Shown here piece after piece: positions 5,947-53,800 of a stretch of 64,000 nt of DNA; the stretch's first letter is position 1; the number at the start of each line of letters is the position of its first letter. The notes beneath the pieces are model-generated. The model was not told the origin of the DNA. It was given only the letters and a program-made list of their open reading frames with translations, and searched no databases. Location: positions 1 through 64,000 of IMG/VR virus record IMGVR_UViG_3300042564_002302. One strand, 5' to 3'. Source of the stretch: a virus. Position numbers and translations under genes: made by a program.

Positions 5947-6162
5947 TTATTCTTCGGAATTAAGACTAGGTTCTGGACCTAATAGATTTCCCTGTCTATG
6001 TTGATCAAGTAATGTCATGAGTTCCTCGCCTTTTCCGACTCCGTCTGCTATTAAGCAGAGAACGTCGTATATGCGAGATAGCATGATATATGTGACAATA
6101 CCGATATTATCATCAATTGATCCTGGTTGACTAAGATTGTCTTCTGGCGCCGAATCACTCAT
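5947..6162 (-). CDS. conserved phage protein of unknown function (71 aa)
   Basis: Contains DDNIGIVTYIMLSRIYDVLCLIAD and ends LLGPEPSLNSEE. I recognise this short helical family (NIG.V.Y..L.R.YDVL, then a LLGP.P.L tail) from other actinophages, where it is unannotated. It overlaps the end of thyX by 8 bases and is the last gene of the operon starting at 7592. Confidence 0.75.
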   Translation of the reverse strand: MSDSAPEDNLSQPGSIDDNIGIVTYIMLSRIYDVLCLIADGVGKGEELMTLLDQHRQGNLLGPEPSLNSEE

Positions 6163-6850
6163 TTTCGAACACTACCTTATAAGTTTCAGGAAATGAATCC
6201 TTAGTTAGTTCTTTAACAGCTCTAGCATATTCCTGGATCTCAAACTGTGCATCATGTTCTAGTCTCTGCTCTAGGAAGTTTAATACTCCATGTAGAGATG
6301 TTGTCCAACGCCAGCGCACATACATTGAATATGCTGGAAGAAGCATACGAGCAAGTTCTGGAGCAATTCCATCTTCTAGAGCCTCGTGATATTTAGATTC
6401 TCCAAAATCAATGATATGACGCAAAGCCTGTGTGTATTTTGCGCCGATCACTACATTGACAGGTTCCGCCGAGCCCTGCTTAGAGTTTTCTGGAGCTCCA
6501 CGCCATTCATCTGGCAGTGGAAGATAGAAATGTTCCTTCTCTGTAATGTATCGTCGTGAAGATTCATTCCAGCCGTTCTGATCATCAATGTGTGTTGATG
6601 AGACAGCATACTTCCACCACTGTCTTGCTACGAAAAGTGGGGCATAGATTTCAAAAGTAACTGCTGCATGTCTAAAAGGACTCGTGTGATTTTCTTTCCA
6701 TAGAAAGCGGAGTAGGTTTGTATCCTTTGGACTTAATTCTTTTGATTCCTTATCGTAGGAAACTCTGGCTGCATTTACAACTGCAAGGTCATCACCCAAA
6801 ACTGAGACGAGTCTGACTGACCCTTTATCTAGTACTTTTAATTGTGTCAT
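6155..6850 (-). CDS. thyX: flavin-dependent thymidylate synthase
   Basis: It methylates dUMP to dTMP using methylene-THF and FAD/NADPH. The phage-type ThyX signature is visible as FVARQWWKYAVSSTH (residues 73-87), followed by GWNESSRRY (93-101), with HTSPFRHA at 55-62. The C-terminal half has SLHGVLNFLEQRLEHDAQFEI, the substrate-binding helix region. At 231 aa it is of normal length. It overlaps both neighbours, so it is coupled within the lysozyme-thyX operon. With the RNR at 8729 it supplies DNA precursors. Confidence 0.95.
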   Translation of the reverse strand: MTQLKVLDKGSVRLVSVLGDDLAVVNAARVSYDKESKELSPKDTNLLRFLWKENHTSPFRHAAVTFEIYAPLFVARQWWKYAVSSTHIDDQNGWNESSRRYITEKEHFYLPLPDEWRGAPENSKQGSAEPVNVVIGAKYTQALRHIIDFGESKYHEALEDGIAPELARMLLPAYSMYVRWRWTTSLHGVLNFLEQRLEHDAQFEIQEYARAVKELTKDSFPETYKVVFENE

Positions 6851-8728: not shown

Positions 8729-10660
8729 ATGCAAGAAACAATTCAAAATCCATACGAGAACTTTATCGCTTTGTCAAGATATGCGAGATGGCTTCCAGAA
8801 GACAATCGTCGTGAGACATGGGGAGAAACAGTAGATCGCTTTGTGTCATACATGACAAAGCATCTAAAAGAGAATCATAGCTATGAGCCATCGGCATCAC
8901 TTACCTTAGAAATTAGAGACGCAATTTTTAATCGTGACATTATGCCATCAATGCGTTCTGTTATGACTGCTGGTTCCGCTTTGGATAGAGATAATGTTGC
9001 TGGATACAACTGCTCTTTCTTGCCAGTCGATTCACTTCGTTCTTTTGACGAAGCAATGTACATTTTGATGTGCGGTACTGGTGTTGGATTCTCTGTCGAA
9101 TCAGTTTATGTTGATAAGCTTCCAATTGTTAATGAGCATTTTGAAAAGTCTAGTACAGTTATTGTTGTTGAAGATTCAAAAGCTGGTTGGGCAAAAGCAC
9201 TTCGTGAGTTGCTTGCACTTCTATGGCAGGGACAAATTCCTACATGGGATGTTTCTCAAGTAAGACCAGCAGGAGCACGTCTTAAGACATTTGGTGGTCG
9301 TGCATCAGGTCCAGAGCCATTGGTAAATCTTTTTGAGTTCTGCGTTACAACAGTAAAGCATGCAGCTGGAAGAAAGCTTCGTCCTATTGAAGCACATGAC
9401 ATTATGTGTAAGGTTGGAGAGGTTGTTGTAGTAGGTGGAGTTCGTCGTTCTGCACTTATCTCACTTTCTGATCTTCGTGATAACGATATGGCTAAAGCAA
9501 AAGCTGGAGCATGGTGGGAAGCAACAGGACATCGTGCACTTGCAAATAATTCAGTAGCATATGCTGATCGTCCTTCGATGTCAGACTTCATTGCAGAGTG
9601 GAAGAATCTTTATGACTCAAAGTCTGGAGAGCGTGGAATTTATAATATCAAGGCTGCACAGAAGCAGGCTGCAAAGTATGGTCGTCGTGATGAGTCAATT
9701 CGTTATGGAACAAATCCTTGCTCAGAAATTATTTTGCGTCCTTATCAGTTCTGCAACCTATCCGAAATCATTGTCAGAGAAGAAGATACGGAAAAGACAC
9801 TTGCACGTAAGGTAGAGCTTGCTACTATTCTTGGAACATGGCAGTCAACACTTACTAACTTTAAGTACCTAAGAAAAATATGGAAAGAAAACACAGAAGA
9901 AGAAAGACTGCTTGGTGTTTCTATCACTGGACAATTTGGCAATGAACTAATGTCTGGCAAGAAGGGTATGGATAAGCTTTCAGACATTCTAAACACTCTT
10001 CGTGAACTTGCAGTATCTACAAACGTAGATGAAGCTGGAAAGATTGGTATTAACCCATCTGCTGCAGTTACCTGTGTTAAGCCTTCTGGTACCGTCTCAC
10101 AGCTTACTGGAGTATCTTCTGGAATGCATCCATGGCACAACGATTATTATATTCGTACGGTTCGTGGAGACAAGAAAGATCCACTTACTCAATTTCTTAT
10201 CGAAGCTGGAGTTCCAGCAGAAGATGATTTTATGAATCCTACACAAACAAAGGTATTCTCATTTCCAATTAAGGCACCAAAGGGAGCAGTTCTTAGAAAT
10301 GACCTAACTGCAATTGAGCACCTTAATATTTGGCTTACATATCAAAGAGCATGGTGTGAGCATAAGCCTTCTATTACCGTTTCTGTTCGTGAAGAAGAGT
10401 GGATGGAAGTAGGAGCTTGGGTTTGGGAGCACTTTGACGAAGTTTCTGGAATCTCATTCTTGCCTTATTCAGATCATACATATAAGCAGGCCCCATATCA
10501 GGATGCAACGGAAGAAGAATACCTTGCTGCAGTGGCAAAGATGCCAGAGCAAATTATGTGGTCTCTTCTTAGCATGTATGAGACAGAAGACACTACTTCT
10601 GGAACTCAAAATCTAGCATGCTCTGCAGATGCAGGCTGTGAAGTGGTTGATATTAGTTAA
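8729..10660 (+). CDS. nrdJ: adenosylcobalamin-dependent ribonucleotide reductase (class II, monomeric)
   Basis: It reduces ribonucleotides to deoxyribonucleotides. Residues expected of the class are visible: redox Cys95 in YNCSF, the radical site TNPCSEI (Asn329, Cys331, Glu333), partner Cys342 in FCNLSEI, and a C-terminal Cys pair (Cys631, Cys637 in ACSADAGC) for regeneration. GTGVGFSVE at about 116-124 and VKPSGTVSQLTG are conserved loops. At 643 aa it is a compact monomeric type with no separate small subunit. It has its own promoter and ribosome site AGAGGAG. The enzyme depends on host B12, so the host must supply cobalamin. Confidence 0.93.
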   Translation: MQETIQNPYENFIALSRYARWLPEDNRRETWGETVDRFVSYMTKHLKENHSYEPSASLTLEIRDAIFNRDIMPSMRSVMTAGSALDRDNVAGYNCSFLPVDSLRSFDEAMYILMCGTGVGFSVESVYVDKLPIVNEHFEKSSTVIVVEDSKAGWAKALRELLALLWQGQIPTWDVSQVRPAGARLKTFGGRASGPEPLVNLFEFCVTTVKHAAGRKLRPIEAHDIMCKVGEVVVVGGVRRSALISLSDLRDNDMAKAKAGAWWEATGHRALANNSVAYADRPSMSDFIAEWKNLYDSKSGERGIYNIKAAQKQAAKYGRRDESIRYGTNPCSEIILRPYQFCNLSEIIVREEDTEKTLARKVELATILGTWQSTLTNFKYLRKIWKENTEEERLLGVSITGQFGNELMSGKKGMDKLSDILNTLRELAVSTNVDEAGKIGINPSAAVTCVKPSGTVSQLTGVSSGMHPWHNDYYIRTVRGDKKDPLTQFLIEAGVPAEDDFMNPTQTKVFSFPIKAPKGAVLRNDLTAIEHLNIWLTYQRAWCEHKPSITVSVREEEWMEVGAWVWEHFDEVSGISFLPYSDHTYKQAPYQDATEEEYLAAVAKMPEQIMWSLLSMYETEDTTSGTQNLACSADAGCEVVDIS

Positions 10661-11546: not shown

Positions 11547-13040
11547 ATGGCAAGACTATTTGCTGTAAATATTGATCTAGCAAAAAATCAACTTATCAAT
11601 GCTAGAGTCCATAACGCTGCAGCTTCAACAGATATATCTAACCCAGGCGTTGGTCAGCTTTACTACAATACAACAGATAACTTCCTATACTTCTGGAACG
11701 GCACCACATGGCTAAGAGCCTCTGGTGATTTTGGTGCTGGTGGAGAAACATCAGCAATTAGATTTAATGCTACAGAGTCAGATGGTACATCGCTTGCTGT
11801 AGCTCGTGCAGATCATACACATGAGATGCCAGATGTGCTTGGCACAACAAACCAGATTACAGTAACTAAAGATGCTACAACTGGGGATGCAACATTCTCT
11901 CTTCCTAATGATGTAACTGTACAAGGAAATATCTCTGCTGCTACATTTACTGGTTCCTTTACTGGAAATGCAGATACAGCATCTAAGTTAAAAGATGCTA
12001 GAGAGATTAAGCTTACTGGTGATGTAACTGGTTCTGTAAACTTTGATGGTTCCGCAAATGTTGAAATTGCAGCTACAGTTGCTCCAAATTCTGTAGCACT
12101 TGGTGATGATACAACTGGATCATTCGTACAGACAGTATCTGTAAGTGGAAATGGTCTTTCAAAGACTGGTGGAGTTGGCGAAAAAGAAGATATAACAATT
12201 TCTTCAAATGCTACCTATCTTTCAACACCAGAAACAATAGTATTCCGTGACTCAGAGGGTGACTTTGAAGCTCACGACATTACAGCTAATAAGGTAATTA
12301 TTACTGGAACCCCAACTTCTGCTACAGATGCAGTGACTAAGGGTTATGTAGATGGGCTAAAGCAAGGCCTTGATGTTAAAGACTCAGTAAAACTTGCAAC
12401 AACAGTAAATATTGCACTTGACAACACAACTACAGCAGTAGATGGTGTATCAATTGTTACTGGAGATAGAATTCTTGTAAAGAATCAAGATACTGGATCC
12501 CAGAACGGCGTATATGTTGCTAGCACAACTGGAGCATGGTCAAGAGCAGAAGATTTTGTTCAAGGTAAAGTATCTGCAGGAGCATTTTTCTTTGTAGAGG
12601 CTGGTAACCTAAACGGCAATAATGGTTTTACGCTAACTACAGATGATCCAATCTCAATTGGCAATACAGCACTAACATTTACTCAGTTCTCAGGAGCTGG
12701 TCAGGTAATTGATGGCGACGGTATTAATAAGAACGGAAATACACTTTCTGTAAATGTTGGAACTGGTATAGTAATTGAAACAGATGCTGTTTCTATTGAT
12801 AAAACAGTAGTAGTTCGTAAGGTAATTGGAACTATTCCAGCAGCTTCAACAGGAACTCAATTTGATATTGGACATAACTTAAATAATGCATATCCAGTAG
12901 TTCAAGTATTTAGAGCTTCTAACGGTACTCTTGTAGAAACCGATGTTGAAAGCGTTGATGCAAATACAACTAAAATTAGAGTAGCAACTGCACCTGCAGA
13001 TCTCGGTCTAGGAGACCTTAAAGTAGTAATTCACGGATAG
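11547..13040 (+). CDS. tail fibre protein (497 aa)
   Basis: The N-terminal module has GVGQLYYNTTDNFLYFWNGT, followed by HTHEMPDVLG and beta-repeats (ATFTGSFTGNADTASKL, TGDVTGSVNFDGSAN) typical of long fibres. A central region TPTSATDAVTKGYVDGLK and a C-terminal GHNLNNAYPVVQVF domain follow. Very Thr/Gly/Ala-rich with no catalytic motif. It is preceded by the ribosome site GAGGAG. It likely forms a trimeric fibre next to the two neighbouring fibre proteins. Confidence 0.8.
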   Translation: MARLFAVNIDLAKNQLINARVHNAAASTDISNPGVGQLYYNTTDNFLYFWNGTTWLRASGDFGAGGETSAIRFNATESDGTSLAVARADHTHEMPDVLGTTNQITVTKDATTGDATFSLPNDVTVQGNISAATFTGSFTGNADTASKLKDAREIKLTGDVTGSVNFDGSANVEIAATVAPNSVALGDDTTGSFVQTVSVSGNGLSKTGGVGEKEDITISSNATYLSTPETIVFRDSEGDFEAHDITANKVIITGTPTSATDAVTKGYVDGLKQGLDVKDSVKLATTVNIALDNTTTAVDGVSIVTGDRILVKNQDTGSQNGVYVASTTGAWSRAEDFVQGKVSAGAFFFVEAGNLNGNNGFTLTTDDPISIGNTALTFTQFSGAGQVIDGDGINKNGNTLSVNVGTGIVIETDAVSIDKTVVVRKVIGTIPAASTGTQFDIGHNLNNAYPVVQVFRASNGTLVETDVESVDANTTKIRVATAPADLGLGDLKVVIHG

Positions 13041-13049
13041 GAGTAGTAA

Positions 13050-16000
13050 ATGGCTAAACAGTTCCTATCTACAGTTGCCCTACCTAGTTTAGAACAAAGC
13101 CCAGATGGTACATATCCTGGTGAGCTTTATTATAATTCTACAGACAGCACAGTCTACACATTTGATGGTATAAATTGGGGTCCAGTTTCTGTTGACTACC
13201 TAAAACAGATGTTTGTTGGTGGATCACACTCTGGAATAGATGTTTCATATAATGCAGCAACAAATACCTTAGATTTAAAATTAGAATCTATAGAATATTC
13301 ACAAGAGCCATCTGGATTTCCAGATAGAACCACTACATCAATATCATATAGCGCTCCATCTAGAACTTTTTCTATAGGGCCAAATGCAAATGAGGGTAAC
13401 TCAGAGTTTGAAGTATTTATTGCTGGGAAAAAGGTTGTAAAGACTACACAAGAGTCCGTAACTCTCCCAGATCAGCCAGGAATATATTATATATACTATA
13501 ACAATAACTATGTTTTAACGTATAGCACTACTGTATTTGACTTTCAATATGATGTTCCAGTTTCAGTAGTTGTTTTAGGACAAAGCCTCGAACCATTAAC
13601 AGTTACCGATGAAAGACATGGAATTGTTATGGATTGGGCAACACATTATTATCTTCATAGAGTTAATGGTACTCAGATAGTAAATGGTGGATTTAATGCT
13701 GGGAACTATACACTTGGCGGAGACGGAACAAACGACTCGCAAGCAAAGCTATCAATAGGAAATGGAACTATCTTTGATGAGGATAATCAGTTTTCTATTA
13801 CACATAGTGATAATCCTGCAGGATATTATGAACAGTATCTAAATCCAAACACAAGGCTTCCAGTATTTTACAGGCTTAACGGTTCATGGGAAAAATCTGG
13901 AATTACAGACTATGCATTTTACTCAGTAGATGGTGTACCACAGATAAATGCTGTTTCTGGATCTACATGGTCACTTTTACCAGAAACAAACAACAAATAT
14001 TTTGCATCATATATAGTAGCAACAAATAGCATAACTTATCCAATTATTGCAATAATGGGACAGAGGTCTGACAACAACATAGGAAATGCAATTGCAAATA
14101 ATAACTTTGCAGACCTAGACCTATCTGGACTTCCAGAAGTTGAGTTTGCTCCACTTTATAGAGTTATTTATAAGTATAATACAGGGTTTACAAGTACATC
14201 TAAGGTTATTATAGAAGATGTATCAAGCATTAAAAAATCTAGCGGATCAAGCGCATCTTCTGTGTCAAGTAATGATCATGGAAATCTTGTAGGGCTAAAC
14301 GATGATGATCATATTCAGTATATACATATTTCTAATCCAAGAACCATAACAGCAGCACATACTTTCAACAATACTGGTGCACCGTTTGTACTTGGACCAA
14401 ATTCATCTGGACAGCTTGTTATTGGATTAAACTCAGAAAAACTTGGCGGTAAGACTTTATCTGAAGTTGAGCATACAGCATTTGGCTATGCACAAGATGC
14501 ACAATCGGCAGCTTTAGCTGCTGCAAAGGGCTATACAGACCAGGAGATAGCAGATCTTGTAGGAACTGCACCTAACCTTTTAAATACCCTTGGTGAGCTA
14601 TCAGATGCCCTAAATGACGATGCCAATTTTGCAGCCACAGTAACCTCAGCACTTGCAGGAAAAGCTTCAACAACACATACACATGCAGCCTCTTCAATAA
14701 CTAATTTTTCAGAAGAAGTTCAAGATGCAGCGGCATCATTATTTACTCACTTAAATCACAATAATATAACAGCAACATATGATGATGTAACAAATCAGAT
14801 AGTATTTACAGCAACAGCTCAGTTAACACAAGAGCAGGTTCAAGATTTTGTATCCCCACTTCTTGTTCATAACAACCACACAAATATTCAGGCAGCATAT
14901 GATGATGACAATAATCAATTAGTTCTTGAGGCAATAATTCCTCCATCAAAGGCTATCATGTCTGCTGCCGCTCCTTCAACTCCAGCAAATGGAGAGTTTT
15001 GGTTTGACCTAGATGAGTTTAGAAGTGGATCAACAAAAGCACTAAAGATATATAATGCTTTCCCACCAGCATACTTGGGCGCATATAATAATGGTGCAGA
15101 TTATTATCCTGGAGATATAGTTTCATATAATGGATCTTTCTATATAAGAATTTTAGAGCCAAATCCTGGATACCCACCTGGAACACCTTATTGGGAAGCA
15201 TATACATTTACACCTGGTTGGGAGTATGTAAGCTCTAACCTATCTTTGTCAACTACAAATGTGTGGACTGCAAAAAATACATTTAATAACGGCGTAATTA
15301 TTGGCCTAAACTCAGCACCTACCGCCCCAGTGCTTGGACAAATTTACTATGATTCAACAACGCTTAAGCTAAGAGCATACAATGGAACAGCTTGGGTAAA
15401 TATAGAAGGCGGCGGCGGTGGCGGCGGAGCAGCATTTGATCTAGTATCAACAGATACATCAGCAGTTCCAGCAATTATGTTCTTTGGTGCAGCAGCACCA
15501 ACAACTGCTCCAAATACTGGAGATATCTGGATAGATATAGACGATGTTGTTGGAGAATCAGAATATATTCACGTAGGTCCAGATGCACCTTCAAACTTTG
15601 GATCAAATACACTGTGGGTTGATACAGATGAAGTAAATGGCCCACTAATATATTCAGATGAAGATCCACCAACATCAACTCCAACAGAAGGAGACTTTTG
15701 GGTAGATCTAGATGATCTTGCAGGGCAACTTGTTGCAGTTGGGTCATCAGCTCCAGACGAGGACACCACAACACTTTGGATTGATACAACAACAGAAGAA
15801 GGTTTAGAAAACTTTACTATAAAGAACGTATTTGAGGGAAATAGATCTGTCTACTCGACATACTCCGCTTTACCAAACCCAGCAACCCACGGCGGAATGA
15901 TTGCATTTGTTGAGTCTGAGCAACAGTTTTATTTAGCATTTTCAGATGTTCCAAATTTAGTTGCTGGAACAACATTTACTGTTACTAAAACAGAATCACC

Positions 16001-16358
16001 TATGGAATATGTGATTAACAATAATCGTGAGCCAGTAATAAACCTTGAAAGAGGAAAGCGGTATGTATTTAATGTTAATACTCCAGGTCACCCATTTTGG
16101 ATTAAAACAGATCCAATAATAGGTGTAGACTATGGCTATCCAACTGGAGTTACAAACAATGGAATATCTTCGGGAACAATTACATTTGATGTTCCTTACA
16201 ATGCTCCTGACGAATTACATTACATTTGCCAAAATCATGCACATATGACAAATAAAATTAATATAACAGGTGTTGTAAATCCAACTGGTGGATGGAATAG
16301 ATTACTTCCAGATAGAGTGCAGGATAATATGGTTGTTCTTTCATGGATGGGATTCTAG
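13050..16358 (+). CDS. large tail fibre with cupredoxin-like C-terminal domain (1102 aa)
   Basis: The N-terminal module PGELYYNSTDSTVYTFDG is shared with the previous gene. The middle part has HTH/NHNNI beta repeats. Residues about 630-920 contain at least five copies of a GDxWxDxDD-type repeat (EFWFDLDE, DIWIDIDD, TLWVDTDE, DFWVDLDD, TLWIDTTT) and a Gly8 run near 15411. The last 130 residues resemble a type I copper fold: GHPFWIKT (His1014) and YICQNHAHM (Cys1060, His1063, His1065, Met1066). It probably binds the host surface; the copper site is inferred from residue spacing only. Confidence 0.8.
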   Translation: MAKQFLSTVALPSLEQSPDGTYPGELYYNSTDSTVYTFDGINWGPVSVDYLKQMFVGGSHSGIDVSYNAATNTLDLKLESIEYSQEPSGFPDRTTTSISYSAPSRTFSIGPNANEGNSEFEVFIAGKKVVKTTQESVTLPDQPGIYYIYYNNNYVLTYSTTVFDFQYDVPVSVVVLGQSLEPLTVTDERHGIVMDWATHYYLHRVNGTQIVNGGFNAGNYTLGGDGTNDSQAKLSIGNGTIFDEDNQFSITHSDNPAGYYEQYLNPNTRLPVFYRLNGSWEKSGITDYAFYSVDGVPQINAVSGSTWSLLPETNNKYFASYIVATNSITYPIIAIMGQRSDNNIGNAIANNNFADLDLSGLPEVEFAPLYRVIYKYNTGFTSTSKVIIEDVSSIKKSSGSSASSVSSNDHGNLVGLNDDDHIQYIHISNPRTITAAHTFNNTGAPFVLGPNSSGQLVIGLNSEKLGGKTLSEVEHTAFGYAQDAQSAALAAAKGYTDQEIADLVGTAPNLLNTLGELSDALNDDANFAATVTSALAGKASTTHTHAASSITNFSEEVQDAAASLFTHLNHNNITATYDDVTNQIVFTATAQLTQEQVQDFVSPLLVHNNHTNIQAAYDDDNNQLVLEAIIPPSKAIMSAAAPSTPANGEFWFDLDEFRSGSTKALKIYNAFPPAYLGAYNNGADYYPGDIVSYNGSFYIRILEPNPGYPPGTPYWEAYTFTPGWEYVSSNLSLSTTNVWTAKNTFNNGVIIGLNSAPTAPVLGQIYYDSTTLKLRAYNGTAWVNIEGGGGGGGAAFDLVSTDTSAVPAIMFFGAAAPTTAPNTGDIWIDIDDVVGESEYIHVGPDAPSNFGSNTLWVDTDEVNGPLIYSDEDPPTSTPTEGDFWVDLDDLAGQLVAVGSSAPDEDTTTLWIDTTTEEGLENFTIKNVFEGNRSVYSTYSALPNPATHGGMIAFVESEQQFYLAFSDVPNLVAGTTFTVTKTESPMEYVINNNREPVINLERGKRYVFNVNTPGHPFWIKTDPIIGVDYGYPTGVTNNGISSGTITFDVPYNAPDELHYICQNHAHMTNKINITGVVNPTGGWNRLLPDRVQDNMVVLSWMGF

Positions 16359-16410: not shown

Positions 16411-16971
16411 ATGTCATTAAAACGTTGGGATGGTACCCAGTGGGTAACCGTTGCAGGATCTAGACCAGGACCAACTGGTCCACAAGGTCCAGCAGGACCT
16501 ACAGGTCCACAAGGCCCAGCAGGGCCACAGGGAGTTGCAGGCCCAGCAGGGCCAGCAGGTGTCCAAGGTGTTGCAGGTCCAGCAGGACCACAAGGTGTTC
16601 AGGGAGTTCAGGGTCCAGTAGGTCCTAGAGGTTCTCAAATCTATAGCGGTAATTCAAATCCGTCACCATCATCTTTATATGCCGACGGTGATTTTTTTAT
16701 AAATAGCGTCACTGGAGACGCTTTCATATATAATAATACTAGCGATACATGGACATTACAAACAAATGTAAAGGGTCCAACAGGTCCAACAGGTCCGCAA
16801 GGTCCAGTAGGTCCTACTGGAGAAGTAGTCGTTGCAGATATTGAAAGAAGAGTTTCTGCTTACGAGATTGACACACTGCTAAATCTTGGCATATATTATC
16901 CAAAATATACAACTTTAGCAAACTTAACTCAGCTGACTGGCACAATGCATGCCACAAGCTTTATAATTTAG
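16411..16971 (+). CDS. collagen-like tail protein (186 aa)
   Basis: After [15 protein letters not shown] a Gly-X-Y region begins at about residue 19 ([19 protein letters not shown]) and runs about 18 triplets to GPVGPRG, with a second run [16 protein letters not shown] at about 124-139. Between them is a fibre module [17 protein letters not shown]. Proline occupies many X and Y positions, as in collagen. It would form a trimeric rod. The nearby oxygenase-like genes (31688-33824) could hydroxylate it; that is inference. Confidence 0.85.
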
Positions 16972-35511: not shown

Positions 35512-35844
35512 ATGAACAAAATTAAATCACAGGCAATAGAAGAAACAATCTACGGACTCTATGTTTGGCAGATGCCAGATGGTAAGTGGGTCGGAGATGA
35601 TGATGGTAACTATTTAAATATACCTTCAGTTAAGAACGATAAGAAAAAGATGGCTATCTTAAAAGAGGTTGTTGGGTCTTATGGCGTAGAAGAGGGTGGA
35701 CCAGTATTCCTTTCAGGAAGACGTAGAGTTACAGACGAAGAGTATGCCCATCAAAGACAAAGGCTTGAATGGGGTCTTACACCAGACCCATATGACATTG
35801 GTGAAAGTTTAGATCAAATGAAGAGGATAAAAAATGGCAACTGA
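35512..35844 (+). CDS. conserved protein upstream of portal (110 aa)
   Basis: Begins MNKIKSQAIEETIYGLYVWQ and contains GKWVGDDDGNYLNIPSVKND and RRRVTDEEYAHQRQRLEWGL. Such a small protein directly before the portal is recurrent in actinophages; function unknown. It overlaps the portal start and is predicted leaderless. Confidence 0.65.
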   Translation: MNKIKSQAIEETIYGLYVWQMPDGKWVGDDDGNYLNIPSVKNDKKKMAILKEVVGSYGVEEGGPVFLSGRRRVTDEEYAHQRQRLEWGLTPDPYDIGESLDQMKRIKNGN

Positions 35845-37405
35845 GTTTGAAGATGAAAAAGACCTTATTGAAATAAGTCATTCAGGAGATCTGCCACTTA
35901 ACGGACAGATGGATGAATATGGAGATCCCTTCAAGAGGGACTTTGATTCGATAAAAAAGATGAATGGTTTCAGCACTAACTTTAAAAAGAAGTTAGCCAG
36001 AACAGATCTCAATAAATTCTTGCGTGGCAATGGTTCAGAAAGTAATGCAATCATTGAGCCATTTATGATTACTGGCTATAGCATATTAGACGTTGTGCAG
36101 CCACCTTACAATATGGATTACCTCTCAAAGATTTATGAAGTTTCTTCAGCTCACTATGGAGCGGTTAATGCAAAGGTTGCAAACATTGTTGGCTTGGGGT
36201 ATGACTTTGTTGAAAGCCAGGCTACAAAAGAAAAGCTTGCAGATATAACAGATGATGTGCAGCTTGAGAGAGCACGTAGAAAGCTAGAGAGAATTAAGAT
36301 TAGTCTTCATGAGTGGCTAGAGTCTACTAACGAAGAGGAAACTGTAGTAGAGACATTGTCTAGAGTCTGGAAGGACTACGAGACAACTGGAAATGGTTAT
36401 ATTGAAATCGGCAGAAAGAATACTGGAGAAATTGGATATATTGGACATGTGCCAGCGGCATCTATGCGTGTTCGTAGACTAAGAGACGGCTTTGTTCAAA
36501 TCATTGGAAATCAGTCTGTATTCTTTAGAAACTATGGATCAGAAGATGATACTAATCCAATAACAGCAGACACTAGACCTAATGAGATTATCCACCTAAA
36601 GAACTATACACCTACAAATGGATATTACGGTGTTCCAGATATTATTGCTTCAAAGAATGCTATGGCTGGAAACGAGTTTGCTGCAAGATTTAACCTTGAC
36701 TACTTTGAGAATAAGGCTGTTCCAAGATATATTATCACAGTAAAGGGTGCCAAGCTTTCAAATGATTCAGAGAAGAAGCTGCTAGAGTTCTTCCAGACTG
36801 GACTAAAGGGTCAAAATCATAGATCACTATATATTCCACTCCCAGCAGATAATCAGGACTCTAAGGTTGAGTTTAAGATGGATGCGGTTGAGGCTGGAGT
36901 TCAAGACTCTTCCTTTAATAACTATAGAACAGCGAATAGAGATGAGATATTAATGTCTCATCGTGTTCCAGTAAATAAGATTGGAACACCTTCTGGCGTC
37001 TCACTTGCCAATGCTCGTGATGCAGACAAGACATTTAAAGAGCAGGTATGTCGTCCAGCACAGAAGAATCTTGAAAAGAGACTTAATAAGATTATCTCTG
37101 AAAAGACAGATATGTTCCTTCTTAAGTTTAATGAGCTTACCCTTACAGATGAAGATACTCAGTCAAAGATTGATGAAAGATATCTTAGAATGAAGGTTTT
37201 AGTACCAAACGAAGTAAGATCCAGAATGGGTCTTCCAGGAATTGCTGGCGGAGACGATCCAGTAGAGCTAAAGCCACAGCAGGCAGCAGAGCAAACAGCT
37301 CAAGCAAGTGGCAATAGAAATCGTGATCAGCAAAGACAAGGTAATCAGCCAGATGTATCTGGAGAGGGAAGAAATGCTCAAGGCGATGGAAGACAGCAAA
37401 ATTAG
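35834..37405 (+). CDS. portal protein (523 aa)
   Basis: Typical HK97-type portal: an N-terminal clip/wing part, TRPNEIIHLKNYTPTNGYYG and VPDIIASKNAMAGNEFAARF (the conserved H.....p..pyG.p....a), then RVPVNKIGTPSGVSLANARD, and a Gln/Asn-rich tail after residue 480. It forms the 12-mer DNA channel at the capsid vertex. The order portal, protease-scaffold, capsid is canonical. Terminase is not present immediately upstream, unlike many phages. Confidence 0.9.
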   Translation: MATEFEDEKDLIEISHSGDLPLNGQMDEYGDPFKRDFDSIKKMNGFSTNFKKKLARTDLNKFLRGNGSESNAIIEPFMITGYSILDVVQPPYNMDYLSKIYEVSSAHYGAVNAKVANIVGLGYDFVESQATKEKLADITDDVQLERARRKLERIKISLHEWLESTNEEETVVETLSRVWKDYETTGNGYIEIGRKNTGEIGYIGHVPAASMRVRRLRDGFVQIIGNQSVFFRNYGSEDDTNPITADTRPNEIIHLKNYTPTNGYYGVPDIIASKNAMAGNEFAARFNLDYFENKAVPRYIITVKGAKLSNDSEKKLLEFFQTGLKGQNHRSLYIPLPADNQDSKVEFKMDAVEAGVQDSSFNNYRTANRDEILMSHRVPVNKIGTPSGVSLANARDADKTFKEQVCRPAQKNLEKRLNKIISEKTDMFLLKFNELTLTDEDTQSKIDERYLRMKVLVPNEVRSRMGLPGIAGGDDPVELKPQQAAEQTAQASGNRNRDQQRQGNQPDVSGEGRNAQGDGRQQN

Positions 37406-37454: not shown

Positions 37455-39005
37455 ATGGAAATATTAAAAGCCAACTGGACAACAGATGGGGATAGCATTA
37501 AAATTGCTGTTCCGTTCTCCAAAGTCGACATTGAAAAGCGTACAGTATCAGGTTTCGCTACCCTAGATAACGTAGACTCACACGGAGATGTTGTTACATC
37601 AGAGGCAAGCGTATCTGCATTTAAGAGATTCAGAGGCAACCTAAGAGAAATGCATCAGCCATTGGCTGTAGGAAAGGTTGTATCGTTTGAACCAAAGGAT
37701 TACTATGATCCAGCAGATGGAAAAGTTTATAGCGGCGTATATGTCACATCATACGTTTCAAAGGGTGCACAGGATACTTGGGAAAAAGTTCTTGATGGAA
37801 CACTTTCTGGATTCTCAATTGGCGGAGCAATCAAGTCAGTAGAAAACGAATTCGTCGCAGATAAAGATGCTATGGTTAGATTTATTAAAGACTATGACCT
37901 TGTAGAACTTTCACTAGTTGATAACCCAGCAAACCAACTTGCAAATATCTTTTCTATTGAAAAGGTAAATGGAGAAATGGTTATGAAGGGTATGGCAACA
38001 GAAGTCAACGCAGAAAATATTTTTTGGTGCGGAGACGATTTTGTAGCAATAACATCTTCACAAGATAACGCTAGCTGCGAGTCTTGCGGAACAGAGATGG
38101 AAAAGGTTGGATGGGTTGAAAAAGATGCAGAGGGAGACACAGTAGAAATTAGAGATGTCTCAGAAGAATATTTCTCAAAGTCTGCATTCAAATCAGGAGA
38201 TTTTGTTTCATGGAATATATCAAATGGAACAGCAAGAGGAAAAGTTTTAAAGTATAACAAATCAAATATTATAGTTGAACTATATCGTCCAAGTGGAAAT
38301 GGTTGGTCTACAACAGAGAAGTCAATGTCAGTTGACATGTCTGCACTAAAAAAGATCTCACCACTTAAGGTAAACACAGAAAAGAATTCTGAGATTGACA
38401 AGGTCACAGAAGAGCGTCGTGAGTCTATTAACGGCGGCGTTTTAAATAAAGAAATAGCCAAAGAAGGAGGTACAGACGTGGAAGATACAACTAATGTTGC
38501 AGCTGAAGAAGTTGCAGTAGAAGCTACCACAGAAGTAGCCTCTGAAGCGGCAGCTGTAGAGGAAGCTGTTGTAGAAGAGGTTGCTGCAGAAACAGCTCCA
38601 GAAGGCGATGACACTGCTGTTGAAAAGGCAGCCGATATTCAGGAAGTCGCCGTCGAAGAGTTGGATTTCGCAAAGAAGCTTGATGAACTCAAGGATTTCT
38701 TTGCTGCAGGATTTGCAAAGAATGCGTCAGAAAGCGCTACTGGACTTGATTCAGTAAAGGCAGAAATCGCAGAAATCGCAAAGTCATCAGACGCTAAGTA
38801 TGATGAGCTTTCAAAGAAGTATGATGAAGTTTCTGCAACACTAGCTGCACTTAAGGGTGGGCTTGATGTTACAGAGAAAAGAATTGATGCAGTTGAATCA
38901 GATACTGCTATCAAGAAGTCTGTTGATCTTGGCGGAACAACAGAAGAACCCATTAAGAAGAGTAAGTGGGGCGGCACATTCCTCGGTGTGCAAAACATTC
39001 TCTAA
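37455..39005 (+). CDS. capsid maturation protease fused to scaffold (516 aa)
   Basis: Protease domain at residues 1-170 with His67 in REMHQPL and Ser121 in GTLSGFSIGGA, the prohead-protease dyad region, and VELSLVDNPAN. An inserted small domain at about 240-300 (FKSGDFVSWNISNGTARGKV, then MSALKKISPL) resembles a DUF2945/Tudor-like beta barrel. The acidic Ala/Glu/Val-rich region (330-400) and coiled coil (DSVKAEIAEIAKSSDAKYDE) at 420-490 are scaffold-like. It lies just before the major capsid gene. Confidence 0.85.
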   Translation: MEILKANWTTDGDSIKIAVPFSKVDIEKRTVSGFATLDNVDSHGDVVTSEASVSAFKRFRGNLREMHQPLAVGKVVSFEPKDYYDPADGKVYSGVYVTSYVSKGAQDTWEKVLDGTLSGFSIGGAIKSVENEFVADKDAMVRFIKDYDLVELSLVDNPANQLANIFSIEKVNGEMVMKGMATEVNAENIFWCGDDFVAITSSQDNASCESCGTEMEKVGWVEKDAEGDTVEIRDVSEEYFSKSAFKSGDFVSWNISNGTARGKVLKYNKSNIIVELYRPSGNGWSTTEKSMSVDMSALKKISPLKVNTEKNSEIDKVTEERRESINGGVLNKEIAKEGGTDVEDTTNVAAEEVAVEATTEVASEAAAVEEAVVEEVAAETAPEGDDTAVEKAADIQEVAVEELDFAKKLDELKDFFAAGFAKNASESATGLDSVKAEIAEIAKSSDAKYDELSKKYDEVSATLAALKGGLDVTEKRIDAVESDTAIKKSVDLGGTTEEPIKKSKWGGTFLGVQNIL

Positions 39006-39027: not shown

Positions 39028-40098
39028 ATGAGCAACGAATTGTTAGAAAAAGCAATTACAACAACAAACTTGGGAACCTCTGCTGGCGATGACGCTAGAG
39101 GCGGTCTCCTAAAGCCAGAACAAGCTAATCGTTTCATCGATTACATGTTTGATGCCACAGTTATTACTAAGGTAGCTCGTACTATACGTATGAGATCAGA
39201 CATTCAAGAAATCGATAAGATTGGCGTTGGCGAGAGAATCCTTCGTGTCGCAACAGAGGCACAGGATACTTCATCTGCACAAGGTGTAGTATTTTCAAAG
39301 ATCTCTCTAGCTACAAAGAAGCTTCGTCTTGACTGGGAACTTTCAAGCGAATCTCTAGAGGATGGTATCGAGGGTGCAGATCTAGAAGATCACATTGCAA
39401 GAATGATGGCTACTCAGGTCGGAAACGACGTTGAGGATCTAGTTATCAACGGTAATGGTGCATCACAAGACCCACTTCTAAAGGCATTTGACGGAGTTCG
39501 CAAGTTGGCAACAACTCACGGACACGTAGTAGATGCAGGTGGAGCAGCAATCACTAAGGGTATCTTCAATGATGCACTTAAGAAGATGCCACGTCGCTAC
39601 AAGCAACGTCGCAACCAGCTTCGCTTCCTTTCTGGTTCAAACTTGGTACAGGATTACCTGTTCAGCTTGACCAGCATTCCAGGAACTCCAGAAGATATCG
39701 CTTCAGGTATCGTTCGTGGTGACGTAGTCGCTAATAACGGAGCTCCAGGAGGAGTCATTCCTTACGCATTTGGTATTCCAGTAGTGGAAGTTCCAATGCT
39801 TGATGAAAACCAAACTGGAACATACTCAGGTGCATCAGGAGCACACGGTGATATTCACCTTACATTCCCTGATAACGTACTTGTCGGTATCAAGCGTGAT
39901 ATCGTAGTACACCGTGAGTTCAAGCCAAAGAAGGATACAATTGAATACACATTGTTCCTTCGTGTTGGAACTGCAATCGAAAATCCAGATGCTTTTGTCG
40001 TCGTAAAGAACGTCAAGATCTCTGCAGGATACGATTCACGTGACTTCGCAGCCGCAACTGGCGGAAGCTACACAAACTATCCAGCAAACCGTCCATAA
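39028..40098 (+). CDS. major capsid protein, HK97 fold (356 aa)
   Basis: Starts MSNELLEKAITTTNLGTSAG. ARTIRMRSDIQEIDKIGVGE, WELSSESLEDGIEGADLEDH and DVEDLVINGNGASQD mark the HK97-fold P-domain helices and loop; the C-terminal VLVGIKRDIVVHREFKPKKD is the usual end. It uses more C-ending codons than its neighbours, as expected for the most abundant protein. Ribosome site AAAGGTGG; strong terminator directly downstream. Confidence 0.92.
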   Translation: MSNELLEKAITTTNLGTSAGDDARGGLLKPEQANRFIDYMFDATVITKVARTIRMRSDIQEIDKIGVGERILRVATEAQDTSSAQGVVFSKISLATKKLRLDWELSSESLEDGIEGADLEDHIARMMATQVGNDVEDLVINGNGASQDPLLKAFDGVRKLATTHGHVVDAGGAAITKGIFNDALKKMPRRYKQRRNQLRFLSGSNLVQDYLFSLTSIPGTPEDIASGIVRGDVVANNGAPGGVIPYAFGIPVVEVPMLDENQTGTYSGASGAHGDIHLTFPDNVLVGIKRDIVVHREFKPKKDTIEYTLFLRVGTAIENPDAFVVVKNVKISAGYDSRDFAAATGGSYTNYPANRP

Positions 40099-44841: not shown

Positions 44842-47800
44842 ATGGCAGAAATTCTAAATACAGAATTTAAAGCGACGGCAGATTTTGGTCAGTTAATTTC
44901 AGAGGCCAATCGTGCCGTTGCTGCTCTTTCTAAACTCAGAAACGAATCATCAAAAGGCAATATGAATATTGCTGCAGATTTTGCTGCAGCCAACAATCAA
45001 TTTAGACAGGCAGTTACATCAACTGGATTATTTACAGCATCCATGGTTGATGTTACCAGTAATACACAAAAGTTTGGAAAGTCTTTAGATCAAGGTAAGT
45101 TGAAACTAAAAGACTACTTTACAACTTGGCGTGATTATAGCAGAGGAACTGCTGGAGATATTAGAAAGCTTGCACAAGAGCAAGTTAGAATGCAACAGTC
45201 TGTTGTCCAGAGTCTTGGAAGAGACATGTCTGGTGCTTCAAAGGCAATGGTTATTACCCCTACTGGTATTGATGCAGTAGCGAATGCTGGAAGAATTGCT
45301 TCTCAAGAATTATCTATATATAACAAGGTTCTCAAAGATGGAGCTACGTCACTTATTAACTGGGGTAAGAATACACAGTGGGCTGGACGTCAGCTTACCG
45401 TAGGACTCACAGTACCTCTTACAATATTTGGAAAAGCTGCTGCAGATGCATTTAAGCAAGCAGATATGGAACTAACAAGACTTACAAAGGTTTACGGCGG
45501 AGCAGCTGGATCATCAGCAGAAGAGTTAGCAATGGTAAGAGACAATGTGTCAGCACTTGCTAGAGAGCTAGCACAAAACTATGGTGCTGCTTATAAAGAA
45601 ACTCTAGCTCTTTCAGCAGACATTGCAGCAACAGGTGCTGAAGGTGAAGCGCTTCTAGGTTCTATTGCAGAAACTACAAGACTTTCTACACTCGGTGAAA
45701 TTGATCGTCAAGAAGCTATGAAGGCAACTCTTGCACTTCAAACTGCATTCAACATGAATACAAAAGAGCTCTCTGAATCAATTAACTTTCTTAACGCAGT
45801 TGAAAACCAAACATCAACAACACTTTCAGATTTAGTTGAAGCAATTCCAAAAGCTGGCCCAGTCATTAGAGGTCTTGGTGGAGACATTGAAGATCTAGCG
45901 CTTCTTATAACAGCGATGAAGGAAGGTGGAATCGGAGCAGCAGAAGGTGCTAACGCACTAAAGTCAGGACTTGGTTCCCTTATTAATCCATCTAAAGCAG
46001 CATCACAGTATATGGCTGGATTTGGTATAAGCCTACAAGGTATTGTTGATAGCAATGCTGGTGACCTTATGGGAACAATTATGGATTTCAAGAAAGCGCT
46101 TGATACCTTAGATCCACTAGCAAAGCAGAAAGCAATCGAATCAATTTTTGGTAAGTATCAGTTTGCAAGAATCGGTGCACTGTTCGATAACATTGGTGAG
46201 CAAGGTAGCCAGACATTACAGGTAATGGATCTCATGAAATTATCTGCTACAGACCTAGGAACAATTGCTGATCGAGAATTAAAACTTCTAACAGAGTCTG
46301 CATCAGGTAGATACAGAAGAGCACTTGAAACATTTAAGGCATCCATATCACAAATTGGTGAGCCATTCTTAAAGGTAGCCGCAGGCCTTCTGGATGTTGG
46401 ATCTAAATTAATTAATATCTTTAATAGCCTTCCAAAGCCAATCAAGGCATTTGCTGCAGGGCTTGGAGTTATAACAGCAGTAATTGGACCAATGATTATG
46501 TTGGCTGGTGTATTTGCTAACTTCCTTGGATATGTTGTCAAGGGTATAGCAATGCTTACCAAGTTTGGTAATAAAGCAGAGTCATTTAAATTAGTAACAA
46601 CTGCCACAGTTGCAGCAGATCAAGTGGCAGACGCCTACACATCTTCATTATATAATCAAGAACAGGCTGCAAGCATTCTTAGAGCCGAATTAGAGCGTTT
46701 GGCAATGGCATATAGGGATATAGCTACTGCAGCCTCTATGCCCCCTCCAGGGGCTCCTGGTGGCGGAATTAGAGGTCCTGGTGGACCAGATAATAACGGC
46801 GGTGGGGGAACTCCTCCAATTATGGTTCCAACATCAACTGCCCCAGAGTTCCAAGACCTTACTGGAACTGTTGAGTCAATTAAGAATGACCCAGCAAAAG
46901 CAAAGTCAATGGAAGTATTTAGTAAGAGAATTAAGGCCTTAGAAGCAGAAGGTCTAAGTACAGCCAGAGCACAGACTGTAGCAATGGCCGAAGTTCAAGA
47001 CATGCTTATGGTTAGCACAGCAGGTGGAAATGCAACTGGATTTGCTACGGCAGTTCAGGGCGGATTTGCTGGATTTGAAAATGGAGTAGTTGGTGGATAT
47101 GGTGGAGACAGAATTGATCTTACATCTGCAAATGCTATGGATGCTCCAAATATTGCACATACAGACCCTGCTGGAAAAAGAAAGGGTGTTCAAACTCTTG
47201 CTCCAACAGTTCAATCAAAAGGTGCAAACGAAGCTTCAAAGAAGTTAAAGGCAGACCCATTTGAATACAATGGAAGAACTTATGATGCTGGACAATTAAG
47301 TATTTATACACCAGAAGAAATTGTAACAATGGGAGGCCAGGGAGTATATATGGGCTCTGGTGTATCTGGTGCATATAAAGCTGCCCCTCAATTTGATGTT
47401 GGAGAGACAGCAATAAGCAAGAAGAAAACTAAGATTGGTAAGCAGGTTGCACTGTTTAAAGAGAGATTTGTTGGTAGAGGATCAGAGCTATCTGCTACAA
47501 CTCCAGTTCCAGTTGCAATGCCAGCACCACAAACACCAGCTAATAAACGTAGTGCAATTGATGTTTATAATGACCCAAATACAGATCAGGCAACAAAGAA
47601 GTCAATTGATCGAAATAGAAAAAAGCAGGGCATGGCACCTCTAGGTGGAGTTGTAAATACACGTGGACTTGAAAAGGGAATGCGTTCTTCTTCAAAGTAT
47701 GCGGCACTATTTAATAATAAAATGATGGCATCTGTAGGAACAGTTGGTATGATTACAAGCATGCTTAACTCTATGACAGGAGTTCAGAACAGCTTAGTAA

Positions 47801-50412: not shown

Positions 50413-50864
50413 TGGGAACAAATAATAACTTTAACTTAACTTTACCAAAGGGTTCCATCCTTGAAATCGAGGATGGCGGAGTATGGAAAAAAGTTACTGA
50501 GCATAACCGTCGTGAGCTCAGTATAGGAAACACCCGCATAGAAGAAACAAAAAGAATGGCTAACGGGACACTAAGAAAGCATTACGTTGCAGATAAATTG
50601 ACTTTCTCTCTTAGCTGGGACATGGTTCCAGGAAACTCTATCAATGCGGTAGAAGGTAGAAGTAGCGGTGTATGGGCTGTAGATAATCTAAAGACGTTTT
50701 ATTCGTCTGCTGCTGGAAGATCATCATTTAGAATACAAATTAAAAAAGCAGATTTATCCTATGAAGGTCCATACACCGTTATTTTTAAAGAATTCTCTCC
50801 AACAATAGTTAAAAGAGGAATTGACACATACTATAACTTGTCTATAGAACTTGAAGAGGTATAA
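50412..50864 (+). CDS. small tail protein after the tape measure (150 aa)
   Basis: MGTNNNFNLTLPKGSILEIE, KVTEHNRRELSIGNTRIEET, LSWDMVPGNSINAVEGRSSG and a C-terminal FKEFSPTIVKRGIDTYYNLS. Position and beta-rich pattern suggest a distal tail or tube-like protein shorter than normal Dit; role inferred from order. It is coupled to both neighbours. Confidence 0.6.
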   Translation: MGTNNNFNLTLPKGSILEIEDGGVWKKVTEHNRRELSIGNTRIEETKRMANGTLRKHYVADKLTFSLSWDMVPGNSINAVEGRSSGVWAVDNLKTFYSSAAGRSSFRIQIKKADLSYEGPYTVIFKEFSPTIVKRGIDTYYNLSIELEEV

Positions 50865-53800
50865 TGCTAAGTACAACCCCAGCTCTATTAGATATCTTTA
50901 AGAAGAACACATCTATCAAGATTGTTCCCAAAGTCGTGCTTGAAAACAATATGAATTATATGGCTAAAAATATTGTTGTTACAAGTACTAATAAAACTGG
51001 TAACGCAACAGACGCAAACCTTGCAACACTATTTCCAGCCTCATCTGTCATTGAACTATTTAGACCATCAAAGCCTGGAATAAAGTATTCTCTTCAAGAA
51101 GCTTCTAAAGACAAGCTTAGCTCATACACATCAAAGACTACCCCAGCAGCAAGAGTTTATCTTGTAGGAAAGAACTCAAAGTATAAGTATTATGTAGCCA
51201 ATCAAGCTGGATCAATCAACATTAACTATGGCCAGAATATTCAGGCAAATAAATTTGTAATGAAGTTTGAAGTAAACCACACAAGACCAACAGTAAATAT
51301 CCAAGCTGGAACAACAGTTGTATTTAATGGTCAGGTTCCAGAAAGTGGAATTATAGAAAAGTGGTATAACGGAAGTGCTTGGCAAGATACTGATACATCT
51401 GCATCTAACACTAAACAAACATTTATAACACTTTCTTTGACAGCTACTAGCCCTGGGTTTATTGGAATTATTGAAATTTCACCACTACACGTAGTGGACA
51501 TGACCAATGTTGTTTCTGAGTTGTCAATAAAGAAAGATGATTCATCTTCATCAGATTTGCTTCCAGTTGGAATGATCACCTCTAACTCTATGTCTATGAG
51601 TTTGTTTGAAGATAAAACTTATGACGTAGTCCCATTTATAAAGGGCAATGCTATTGATACAACAAAGATTCAAATTGGAGTAAACTCTAAGTTTAAAGTT
51701 TCAGCAGTCGTGGACGACACAAATACAGTACAGCAGGGAATATTCTACGCAGTATCAGTTAACGAAGGCGAGTTTGGCTCATTTTCTGTAGACGCCCTTG
51801 ATGTTGCTAAGCACTTACAAGAAATGAAATGTCCAGAAATTTTAATTGATAATGCACCATTTCAGTCAGTTATATGGAGACTGCTTGACGCAGCTGGCTT
51901 TGTAGACTACGATTTTACAAACTGTCAAAATCAAATTCTTACAGTTAAGTACTGGTGGGGAGATGACAGCAAAACTGTATGGCAAGCTATTCAAGAACTA
52001 TGTAGAGAAACACAAACAGTCGCCTATGTTGACGAATATGGAAAATTAGTATTCTATGACAAGACTTTATTTTATAGTAATGCTAAGTCCGCATCATGGA
52101 CCTTTAGATATGCTGCAGATGGGGACAACAAACCAGATATTATTGGTCTTTCTAAAAAAGAAACACCAACATCAAACAACATTACGGTTAACTACTCAGT
52201 CCCAATGGTTAGCAGCCTTGAAAAAACATCTAATCCAGCATGGGATGAACAATCTCCATCTACTCTATACGCTGCTCCGTTCCAAGGTATTGTCTCAGAA
52301 GGTGGATCAGACTATATAAAGTACTCATTGCAGAATGTATTTTCTACAAGTATTCCAACAAGAATGAATTCTTATGTAATTATTGATCAGGAAGTTATTG
52401 AATATGAAGGCATCGAATTTTCATACCCATCAATTAAAGAGGAAGATGCAGCAGGAGTAGTTCAGACTGTTGCGGCTGGAAAGAAAGTTATTACAAACGA
52501 CAATGACTTTTTAGAAATGAGATCTAGGTACGGCAACACGCTTGTTGAAACTGGCAGATTAAAGATTAAGACCAGAGGCGTATTTGGAACAACATCAGCT
52601 ACACATAACTCAGACCCATCAGCATTTATATCTCCATGGTCAGCAAAACACTATAATCCTACCTCAAGTCCAGTTTATTCTAATGGCGTTACCTGGACTG
52701 TTGCTGAAACAGATGCAAAGTCCTTATTGTCAGGAAAGGGATCTGCTGGAGAAAATCTATCAGCACTGGTTATAAATAAAAATCCAGCTGGCAAGAAGAA
52801 TACATATACTGTTGCCTATAAAGCTATGGCTGGCACATATTCAACCTATACACAATATGGGACAAAGTTTGGATTCAAACTAGAAGAAAACGTATCTGGG
52901 CAAGAAGCAGGTATGATAATTAACTGGGATCCATCAACAAAAAGTGGATACCGTGTAAAGATAGTAAGTACTAAAACTGCAGCATCTGCAGGTACTAATG
53001 AACTTACTATACAAAAAATTGTAGGCGGTGTGCCTACTCAATTTAGCAAACCACTAGCAGTCAATGTATTTGAAAACAGATACTACCCTCTAGAAGTTGT
53101 GCTTGAAAAGCAGTCTGGTAAAAATATAATAACTGCATATGTTGGAGCTGGCAACAAATCAACGTGGGAAGATTCGGTATCACCATTACCAGATTCTGGA
53201 AACATAGCAGTGTATTCTGGATCACAGAGCACAGCGTACTTTGACTATATTTACGCAACCTCCCTTGTATCTGCAAATCCAGACTTCAGTGTTAACAGAA
53301 ATATATCGGCAATCAACCTGCTGTATAGTTTTGGTGGATACAACATGACCAACTTTAAGCAAGAAGCAGCAAGTAAAGATATTTATGAGTTTGGATCTGT
53401 TGCACGAGAGATGTATAAATATGATATTGCGTATTATATTAAACCTTCAATCCCACAGGTGGTTGCATCAACCAATCCCTACGTAGAGGCAATCGGCCTG
53501 AGACTTGGCGCATTTGGCGGAGAGTTCTTTTTGGTAAACACATCTAGCTCTACAGTTGAACTGGCTGGGGATAATGGTATAAAAACAATTGTTGTAGCAA
53601 AGAATATTAATAAGAGCGGACCAATGACAATTGAGAAAAAGCCAACTAGTGGGGACATAAGTCAGTCTATGAAGTTTGAAACATCATGGATACAGACCAA
53701 GGCATCGGCAGAGAGTCTTGCCACATGGCTACAAACACAATGGTCGAAGGCTACAGTAGATGTTGAGATGGAGTGCTTTGGTAATCCACTCTTTCAGATC

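What the first reader, a model, noticed from the sequence alone, without database searches (positions are those of the whole stretch)
15966..16355. Cupredoxin-like domain at the tip of a tail fibre
The C-terminus of the 1102-aa fibre has GHPFWIKT and YICQNHAHM, with His1014, Cys1060, His1063/1065 and Met1066 placed as in type I copper sites. I recall similar GHPFW/YICQxH sequences in marine phage fibres. Copper on a fibre tip could serve redox sensing, receptor binding or just stabilise the fold.
Basis: partly seen in the sequence, partly recalled or inferred. Interest (0 to 1): 0.65.

Follow-up and report, generated by a model that had tools for sequence, protein, structure and literature searches.

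The report
Copper-protein domain on phage tail fibre
A bacterial virus ends one of its tail-fibre proteins in a domain that folds like the blue copper proteins of photosynthesis and respiration and keeps all four copper-holding residues; the same domain occurs in hundreds of aquatic phages, mostly annotated only as baseplate or tail-fibre parts.

Summary
The 1102-aa fibre-like ORF (13050-16358 +) carries a ~99-residue domain at aa 975-1073. AlphaFold2 models it confidently (pLDDT 94.4), and all 50 listed PDB matches are cupredoxin-fold proteins (rusticyanin first). His1014, Cys1060, His1063 and Met1066 fit a type-1 copper site with the short amicyanin-type C-x2-H-x2-M loop; His1065 is not conserved, so His1063 is the ligand. 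Cys1060 is the only cysteine in the protein. In 62 non-redundant viral relatives, 57 keep all four residues. Four of five copies that lost the Cys also lack the second His and/or Met, and all five sit on long branches.

The domain is widespread: about 260 phage records, nearly all cyanophages, including the C-terminus of cyanophage gp9 (baseplate wedge-tail fibre connector), T7-like phages, and exported proteins of bacteria. No Pfam model reaches its cut-off on the window domain, and no paper found in the held library describes a cupredoxin in a phage tail.

Most likely it is a copper-binding beta-sandwich module used for fibre architecture and contacts. Copper binding itself, redox function and position at the physical tip remain unshown. 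Verdict: a known fold in a new, systematic setting; interest 0.6.

The parts
13050..16358 (+). 1102-aa tail-fibre-like virion protein carrying the domain
   Evidence: PHROG tail fibre / tail protein matches around aa 464-593, PHROG 8309 matches, PHROG 677 and 9158 over the C-terminus; homologue of the same layout in L007
13050..13184 (+). N-terminal ~45 aa (GELYYNSTDSTVYTFDGINWGPVS), similar to another structural ORF of this phage and presumably the attachment end
   Evidence: resemblance to the N-terminus of the neighbouring ORF 11547-13040 and to L007; role inferred
15972..16268 (+). cupredoxin-fold domain, aa 975-1073
   Evidence: family HMM E=2.6e-39 (the family includes this sequence); AlphaFold2 pLDDT 94.4, eight strands; Foldseek: all 50 listed PDB hits are cupredoxin-fold proteins
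16089..16091 (+). His1014 codon, first predicted Cu ligand (in GHPFWIKT, the place of rusticyanin His85 in GHSFDITK)
16227..16229 (+). Cys1060 codon, predicted Cu thiolate ligand; the only Cys in the protein
16236..16238 (+). His1063 codon, second predicted His ligand
16245..16247 (+). Met1066 codon, predicted axial ligand
16269..16355 (+). C-terminal 29-aa tail after the domain (ending GGWNRLLPDRVQDNMVVLSWMGF), resembling the tail of L002-L008
   Evidence: low-confidence strand plus short helix in the second model

Best explanation
The C-terminal domain of this fibre is a genuine cupredoxin-fold module with an intact type-1-style ligand set (His1014, Cys1060, His1063, Met1066; amicyanin-length loop). 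It belongs to a module family that aquatic phages put into fibre, connector and baseplate proteins. Proposed mechanism: the fibre is made in the cytoplasm as a compact beta-sandwich without disulfides; the domain takes up a single copper ion (in the cell as Cu(I), or after lysis from the water); the metal staples the ligand loops, giving a rigid knob that makes protein-protein or protein-surface contacts at the end of the fibre (in cyanophage gp9, at the end away from the gp9/10-type N-terminus). Shown by computation: predicted fold, ligand residues, conservation, joint loss, presence in named fibre and connector proteins. Inferred: copper binding, when it is loaded, and a structural/contact role rather than electron transfer.
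For: Fold: pLDDT 94.4, pTM 0.87, with Cys1060 at the end of the penultimate strand and His/Met in the loop before the last; all 50 listed PDB hits are cupredoxin-fold proteins, best rusticyanin E=7.6e-5, with azurin variants carrying the loops CTPHPFM and CAAHAAM (both C-x2-H-x2-M) among them. Sequence: a profile of 41 relatives finds laccase, Cu nitrite reductase, azurin and plastocyanin as top PDB hits, with the Cys, His and Met of azurin and nitrite reductase in register, though weakly (best E=0.009). Rusticyanin reads GHSFDITK ... YYYVCQIPGHAATGM with His85, Cys138, His143, Met148, against GHPFWIKT ... HYICQNHAHM here. A cellular member, L085, passes Pfam's cut-off for PF00127 plastocyanin/azurin (26.5 vs 21.2 bits) over the same domain. 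Selection on the site: 57/62 non-redundant viral domains keep HCHM; of the 5 that lost Cys, 4 also lack His2 and/or Met, against 0 of 57 (Fisher p=9e-6), while 89% of other conserved cells stay; those five have end branches of 0.79-1.32 against a median of 0.27. Sole-Cys pattern in many carriers. Setting: cyanophage gp9 (P-SSM4, S-ShM2, P-RSM4, ACG-2014a/d and others) ends in this domain, with a T4 gp9/10-type N-terminus shown for P-SSM4.
Against: No metal was detected and no spectrum exists. AlphaFold models the apo chain, and ligand distances could not be measured. Full-domain Foldseek superpositions are moderate (query TM about 0.45-0.65). Some copies survive without Cys, His or Met, so the fold can serve without copper, and vestigial or apo use is possible in any single case. 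The domain is not confined to one place in fibres. No partner protein for electron transfer or receptor is known. The Fisher test treats copies as independent, the pattern search favoured copies that keep the first His, and one of the five Cys-less rows (L044, aa 162-253) is simply truncated or unalignable over the C-terminal ligands.
Confidence: 0.6

Rival explanations
1. Apo structural module: the domain is a cupredoxin-fold beta-sandwich used as a fibre building block, and the His/Cys/His/Met cluster is inherited from a cellular exported cupredoxin and rarely or never metallated in virions.
For: Several viral copies keep the fold's core residues after losing Cys, His2 or Met (L014, L034, L038, L044). 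The domain is shuffled freely among positions and proteins. Phage proteins are assembled in the cytoplasm, where free copper is scarce (established knowledge).
Against: Ligands are among the most conserved columns at 42% mean column identity, are lost together, and the losers sit on long branches; the tblastn-found cyanophage copies all keep the residues.
Confidence: 0.2
2. Receptor-binding or metal-baited adhesion: the domain at the distal end recognises the host surface, with the copper (or the exposed His) forming part of the contact, comparable to the 'Ferrojan horse' idea for iron on tail fibres.
For: Near-C-terminal position in this fibre and its closest relatives; a fibre with HxH motifs has been proposed to carry iron that host receptors recognise (PMC11705849).
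Against: The domain is mid-protein or N-terminal in other carriers and sits in gp9, a connector. Between the window and L007 it is about as diverged as the rest of the same fibre (50% identity vs 47-73% per 100-aa segment), without the hypervariability usual for receptor tips.
Confidence: 0.15
3. Redox-active module: copper cycles Cu(I)/Cu(II) to sense or exchange electrons at the host surface, for example to trigger fibre deployment near a photosynthetic or respiring envelope.
For: Ligand set and loop match electron-transfer cupredoxins; many carriers infect cyanobacteria.
Against: No partner, no known signalling path in a virion, and the domain also occurs in phages apparently unrelated to cyanophages (this phage's capsid protein is closest to Streptomyces phages).
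Confidence: 0.08
4. Another metal or no specific metal: the cluster binds Zn(II), Fe or Ni rather than copper.
Against: His-Cys-His-Met on this fold with this loop is the canonical copper set; one free Cys with an axial Met is unusual for Zn or Fe (established knowledge).
Confidence: 0.07

Closest known systems
Rusticyanin / amicyanin / plastocyanin / azurin (type-1 cupredoxins, Pfam PF00127)
   Same: Predicted eight-strand cupredoxin fold, His + C-x2-H-x2-M (amicyanin-length loop), GHxFxI[TK] first-His motif as in rusticyanin GHSFDITK
   Different: Part of a 1102-aa fibre, no PF00127 match for the window copy, identity 12-22% in Foldseek alignments, no known redox partner
PHROG 677, cyanophage gp9 'baseplate wedge tail fiber protein connector'
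   Same: Its C-terminal ~100 aa are the same domain with the same four ligands
   Different: P-SSM4 gp9 has a T4 gp9/10-type N-terminus (PF07880); the window fibre shows no PF07880 match and is a much longer protein of an unrelated-looking phage
Pfam PF25489 (At5g54830-like domain)
   Same: Nearest named Pfam family; 8 of 41 relatives match at E<0.01
   Different: Below the curated cut-off for the window copy (19 vs 27 bits); named after a plant protein
Metal-binding tail fibres (HxH iron sites; Alteromonas phage R22Y, PMC11705849; T4 gp37 from own knowledge)
   Same: Transition metal proposed on a phage tail fibre
   Different: HxH iron sites, versus a mononuclear site inside one cupredoxin domain
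Exported cellular homologues (for example L070 Acidobacteria 160 aa, L071 Bdellovibrionales lipoprotein-like, L065 OCS116)
   Same: Same domain, best ones 44-56% identical, same ligands
   Different: Small secreted/lipoprotein-like proteins or fused to other extracellular domains, not virion proteins

Membership tests
Cupredoxin fold superfamily | Greek-key beta-sandwich of about eight strands | tested here: met
   AlphaFold2 pLDDT 94.4 with 8 strands; all 50 listed PDB Foldseek matches are cupredoxin-fold proteins
Type-1 (blue) copper proteins | His, Cys, His, axial Met at canonical sequence positions | tested here: met
   His1014 before strand 5, Cys1060 at the end of strand 7, His1063 and Met1066 in the loop to strand 8; family profile in register with Cys-His-Met of azurin and nitrite reductase
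Type-1 (blue) copper proteins | Ligand side chains within bonding distance of one point | not testable with these tools
   Model coordinates are not exposed; only inferred from topology
Type-1 (blue) copper proteins | Binds copper, ~600 nm absorption, narrow EPR hyperfine splitting | not testable with these tools
   Needs recombinant protein
Pfam PF00127 Copper-bind | Score above curated cut-off | tested here: not met
   Window domain has no PF00127 match; two of 41 relatives match at E<0.01; cellular relative L085 passes (26.5 vs 21.2). So the window copy is not filed in PF00127
PHROG 677 (cyanophage gp9) | Match to the C-terminal ~85 positions | tested here: met
   E=5e-17 over profile 327-410 of 412
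PHROG 677 (cyanophage gp9) | T4 gp9/10-type N-terminal domain (PF07880) | tested here: not met
   Present in P-SSM4 gp9, no match in the window fibre: it shares the domain but is not a gp9
Electron-transfer cupredoxins | Redox partner or electron-transfer function | not testable with these tools
   No partner gene recognised; single copy in the 90-kb contig
Distal tip of a tail fibre | C-terminus is the free end, N-terminus bound to the tail | not tested
   Inferred from usual fibre polarity and the N-terminus resembling a neighbouring structural ORF

The most novel reading that the evidence does not exclude
Virions of a large share of aquatic tailed phages, including many T4-like cyanophages through gp9, are copper proteins: each carries many type-1 copper sites on its fibres or fibre connectors, loaded from the host or the water, with a role in fibre deployment or host contact and a measurable part in the binding of dissolved copper.
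Probability: 0.3. Interest if true: 0.85.

Novelty: new variant of a known kind. Interest (0 to 1): 0.6.

Why it matters
Cupredoxins are known as periplasmic, thylakoid or secreted electron carriers and enzyme domains; no paper found here describes one as a systematic part of phage tails. If the sites are metallated, hundreds of sequenced cyanophages and many uncultured aquatic phages carry copper on the machinery that touches the host. That would give gp9 and related proteins a biochemical handle, link virions to trace-metal chemistry as proposed so far for iron, and be checkable by purifying one domain and looking at its colour.

Tried and rejected
His1065 as a ligand: rejected, position not conserved. 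CuA-type dinuclear site: rejected, only one Cys. Chance motif: rejected. Sequence artefact: rejected, intact ORF and a 100% identical domain in another contig, L001. A photosynthesis-type auxiliary plastocyanin gene (petE) carried by the phage: rejected, no separate gene, the domain is inside a fibre ORF. Sequence search of the PDB with the single domain gave only chance hits; the profile and fold searches were needed. hhalign against a rusticyanin fragment aligned only the last strand and loop. Papers: nothing for cupredoxin with phage tail, tail fiber or cyanophage beyond unrelated text. The second structure model (last 203 aa) is confident only over the domain; the tail and the segment before it are low confidence. 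Tree of the domain: viral and cellular rows are partly intermixed (7 changes), too few columns to root or date transfers.

Full report
What is there. The window is part of a 90,415-base virus record. Its structural genes (portal 35834-37405, protease 37455-39005, major capsid 39028-40098, tape measure 44842-50412, minor tail 50864-53932) fit a long-tailed phage; no sheath protein was recognised among the ORFs scanned. The ORF 13050-16358 (+) encodes 1102 aa. It has tail-fibre PHROG matches in its middle and PHROG 677 (baseplate wedge tail fiber protein connector) and 9158 matches at its C-terminus. A family HMM bounds the domain to aa 975-1073, window 15972-16268, and finds no second copy in the 90 kb.

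Fold. AlphaFold2 on a 41-sequence alignment of the window domain and viral relatives gives pLDDT 94.4 and pTM 0.87, eight strands. Foldseek against the PDB lists 50 matches, all cupredoxin-fold proteins: rusticyanin, AcoP, CuA domains, plastocyanins, azurins, pseudoazurins, nitrite reductases, multicopper oxidases. Among them are azurin variants carrying the loops CTPHPFM or CAAHAAM, which have the same C-x2-H-x2-M spacing. Independently, an HMM of the family scanned against PDB sequences returns copper proteins of this fold in nearly every row, weakly (best E 0.009) but with Cys-His-Met in register with azurin and nitrite reductase. Rusticyanin reads GHSFDITK...YYYVCQIPGHAATGM with His85, Cys138, His143, Met148, close to GHPFWIKT...HYICQNHAHM here. 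A cellular relative (L085) passes Pfam's cut-off for PF00127; the window copy has no PF00127 match.

The site. In alignment A1 His1014 is invariant and Cys1060, His1063 and Met1066 are at least 90% conserved at a mean column identity of 42%; His1065 is not conserved. In 62 non-redundant viral domains 57 keep all four. The five without Cys keep most of the fold's other conserved residues (89% of cells), but four of them also lack the second His and/or the Met, against none of 57 (Fisher p=9e-6). These five have end branches of 0.79-1.32 changes per column against a median of 0.27. This is what relaxed constraint after loss of a metal site would look like; limits are that rows are related, that the scan pattern favoured copies with the first His, and that one of the five rows does not align over the C-terminal ligands at all. 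Cys1060 is the only Cys in the 1102-aa protein, and many other carriers likewise have no Cys outside the motif. Copies from named cyanophages were found by tblastn, not by that pattern, and all domains read in 16 records keep the first His and C-x2-H-x2-M, most with HPFRI or the like instead of HPFWI.

Where else. tblastn finds the domain in 245-264 phage records, almost all cyanophages. In T4-like cyanophages it is the C-terminal end of gp9, in P-SSM4 and S-ShM2 directly after gp7; P-SSM4 gp9 starts with a T4 gp9/10-type N-terminus (PF07880). It is in fibre-like proteins of P-SSM2 and Bellamy, near the N-terminus of a structural-region ORF of the T7-like phages P-SCSP2 and P-GSP1, and at the end of a protein annotated as a subtilisin-like protease. 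In uncultured viruses it often occurs twice in one protein, and in L002-L005 in two adjacent genes. Cellular genomes hold it too, in Pseudomonadota, Bacteroidota, Myxococcota, Acidobacteriota and others, as small exported or lipoprotein-like proteins or fused to other extracellular domains. Viral and cellular copies are partly intermixed in the tree, so more than one transfer is likely, but the tree is too short to root.

How it probably works. Shown: predicted fold, ligand residues, conservation as a set, presence on fibre and connector proteins. Inferred: that copper is bound, and what for. The least demanding account is a metal-stapled interaction knob: phage fibres fold in a reducing cytoplasm where disulfides do not help, and a one-ion site would rigidify loops equally well. 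In gp9 the domain sits opposite the baseplate-type N-terminus, and T4 gp9 meets the long tail fibre there (own knowledge), so contact with another fibre protein is at least as likely as contact with a receptor. Redox sensing is possible but has no known partner.

Known or new. The fold is old and the phage proteins are in databases under baseplate or fibre names. The text searches of the held papers found no description of a cupredoxin domain in phage tails; subscription papers and database-only annotations are not covered. Closest precedent in idea is iron on tail fibres (PMC11705849). I rate it a new variant of a known kind.

Noticed in passing
window 39028-40098: Major capsid protein is 59-62% identical to those of Streptomyces phages (Coruscant, Mandalore, Braelyn), so the host may be an aquatic actinobacterium rather than a cyanobacterium.
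   Followed up: partly
L005:2473-2805, L003:2473-2802: The gene just upstream of the homologous fibre gene ends in a second, divergent cupredoxin-like domain with the same ligands.
   Followed up: partly
L014:3965-4255, L034:2297-2599, L038:2818-3126, L044:1466-1780, L050:4025-4354: Degenerate copies of the domain that lost Cys, usually together with His2 and/or Met, while keeping most of the fold's core residues; in L034 and L038 a second copy in the same protein is intact.
   Followed up: yes
BFVD matches A0A481Z7Q7, A0A481Z6J5, A0A481YVH3: 'Beta-sandwich proteins' of Pithovirus and Marseillevirus metagenome genomes (LCPAC/LCMAC) share the predicted fold, 24-27% identity: the module may also occur in giant viruses.
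   Followed up: no
L065:4134-5399 and relatives L060, L063, L064, L067, L074, L075: Marine alphaproteobacteria (OCS116/PS1/Rhodobiaceae) carry a ~420-aa protein with two such domains, one divergent (HPLAIS...YYYCLFHSGM), one close to the phage copies.
   Followed up: no
L173:1741-3231, L175:1744-3228: The gene after gp9 in T4-like cyanophages carries a further distant variant (YYFCYNHANM; FSYFCRYHGLM), so one baseplate may hold two kinds of site.
   Followed up: no
window 16411-16971: Collagen-like ORF (Gly-X-Y repeats, Pfam Collagen) directly after the fibre gene, probably another fibre shaft.
   Followed up: no
window 8729-10660 and 6155-6850 (-): Ribonucleotide reductase with a B12-dependent (class II) insertion domain and a thymidylate synthase next to the structural genes.
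   Followed up: no
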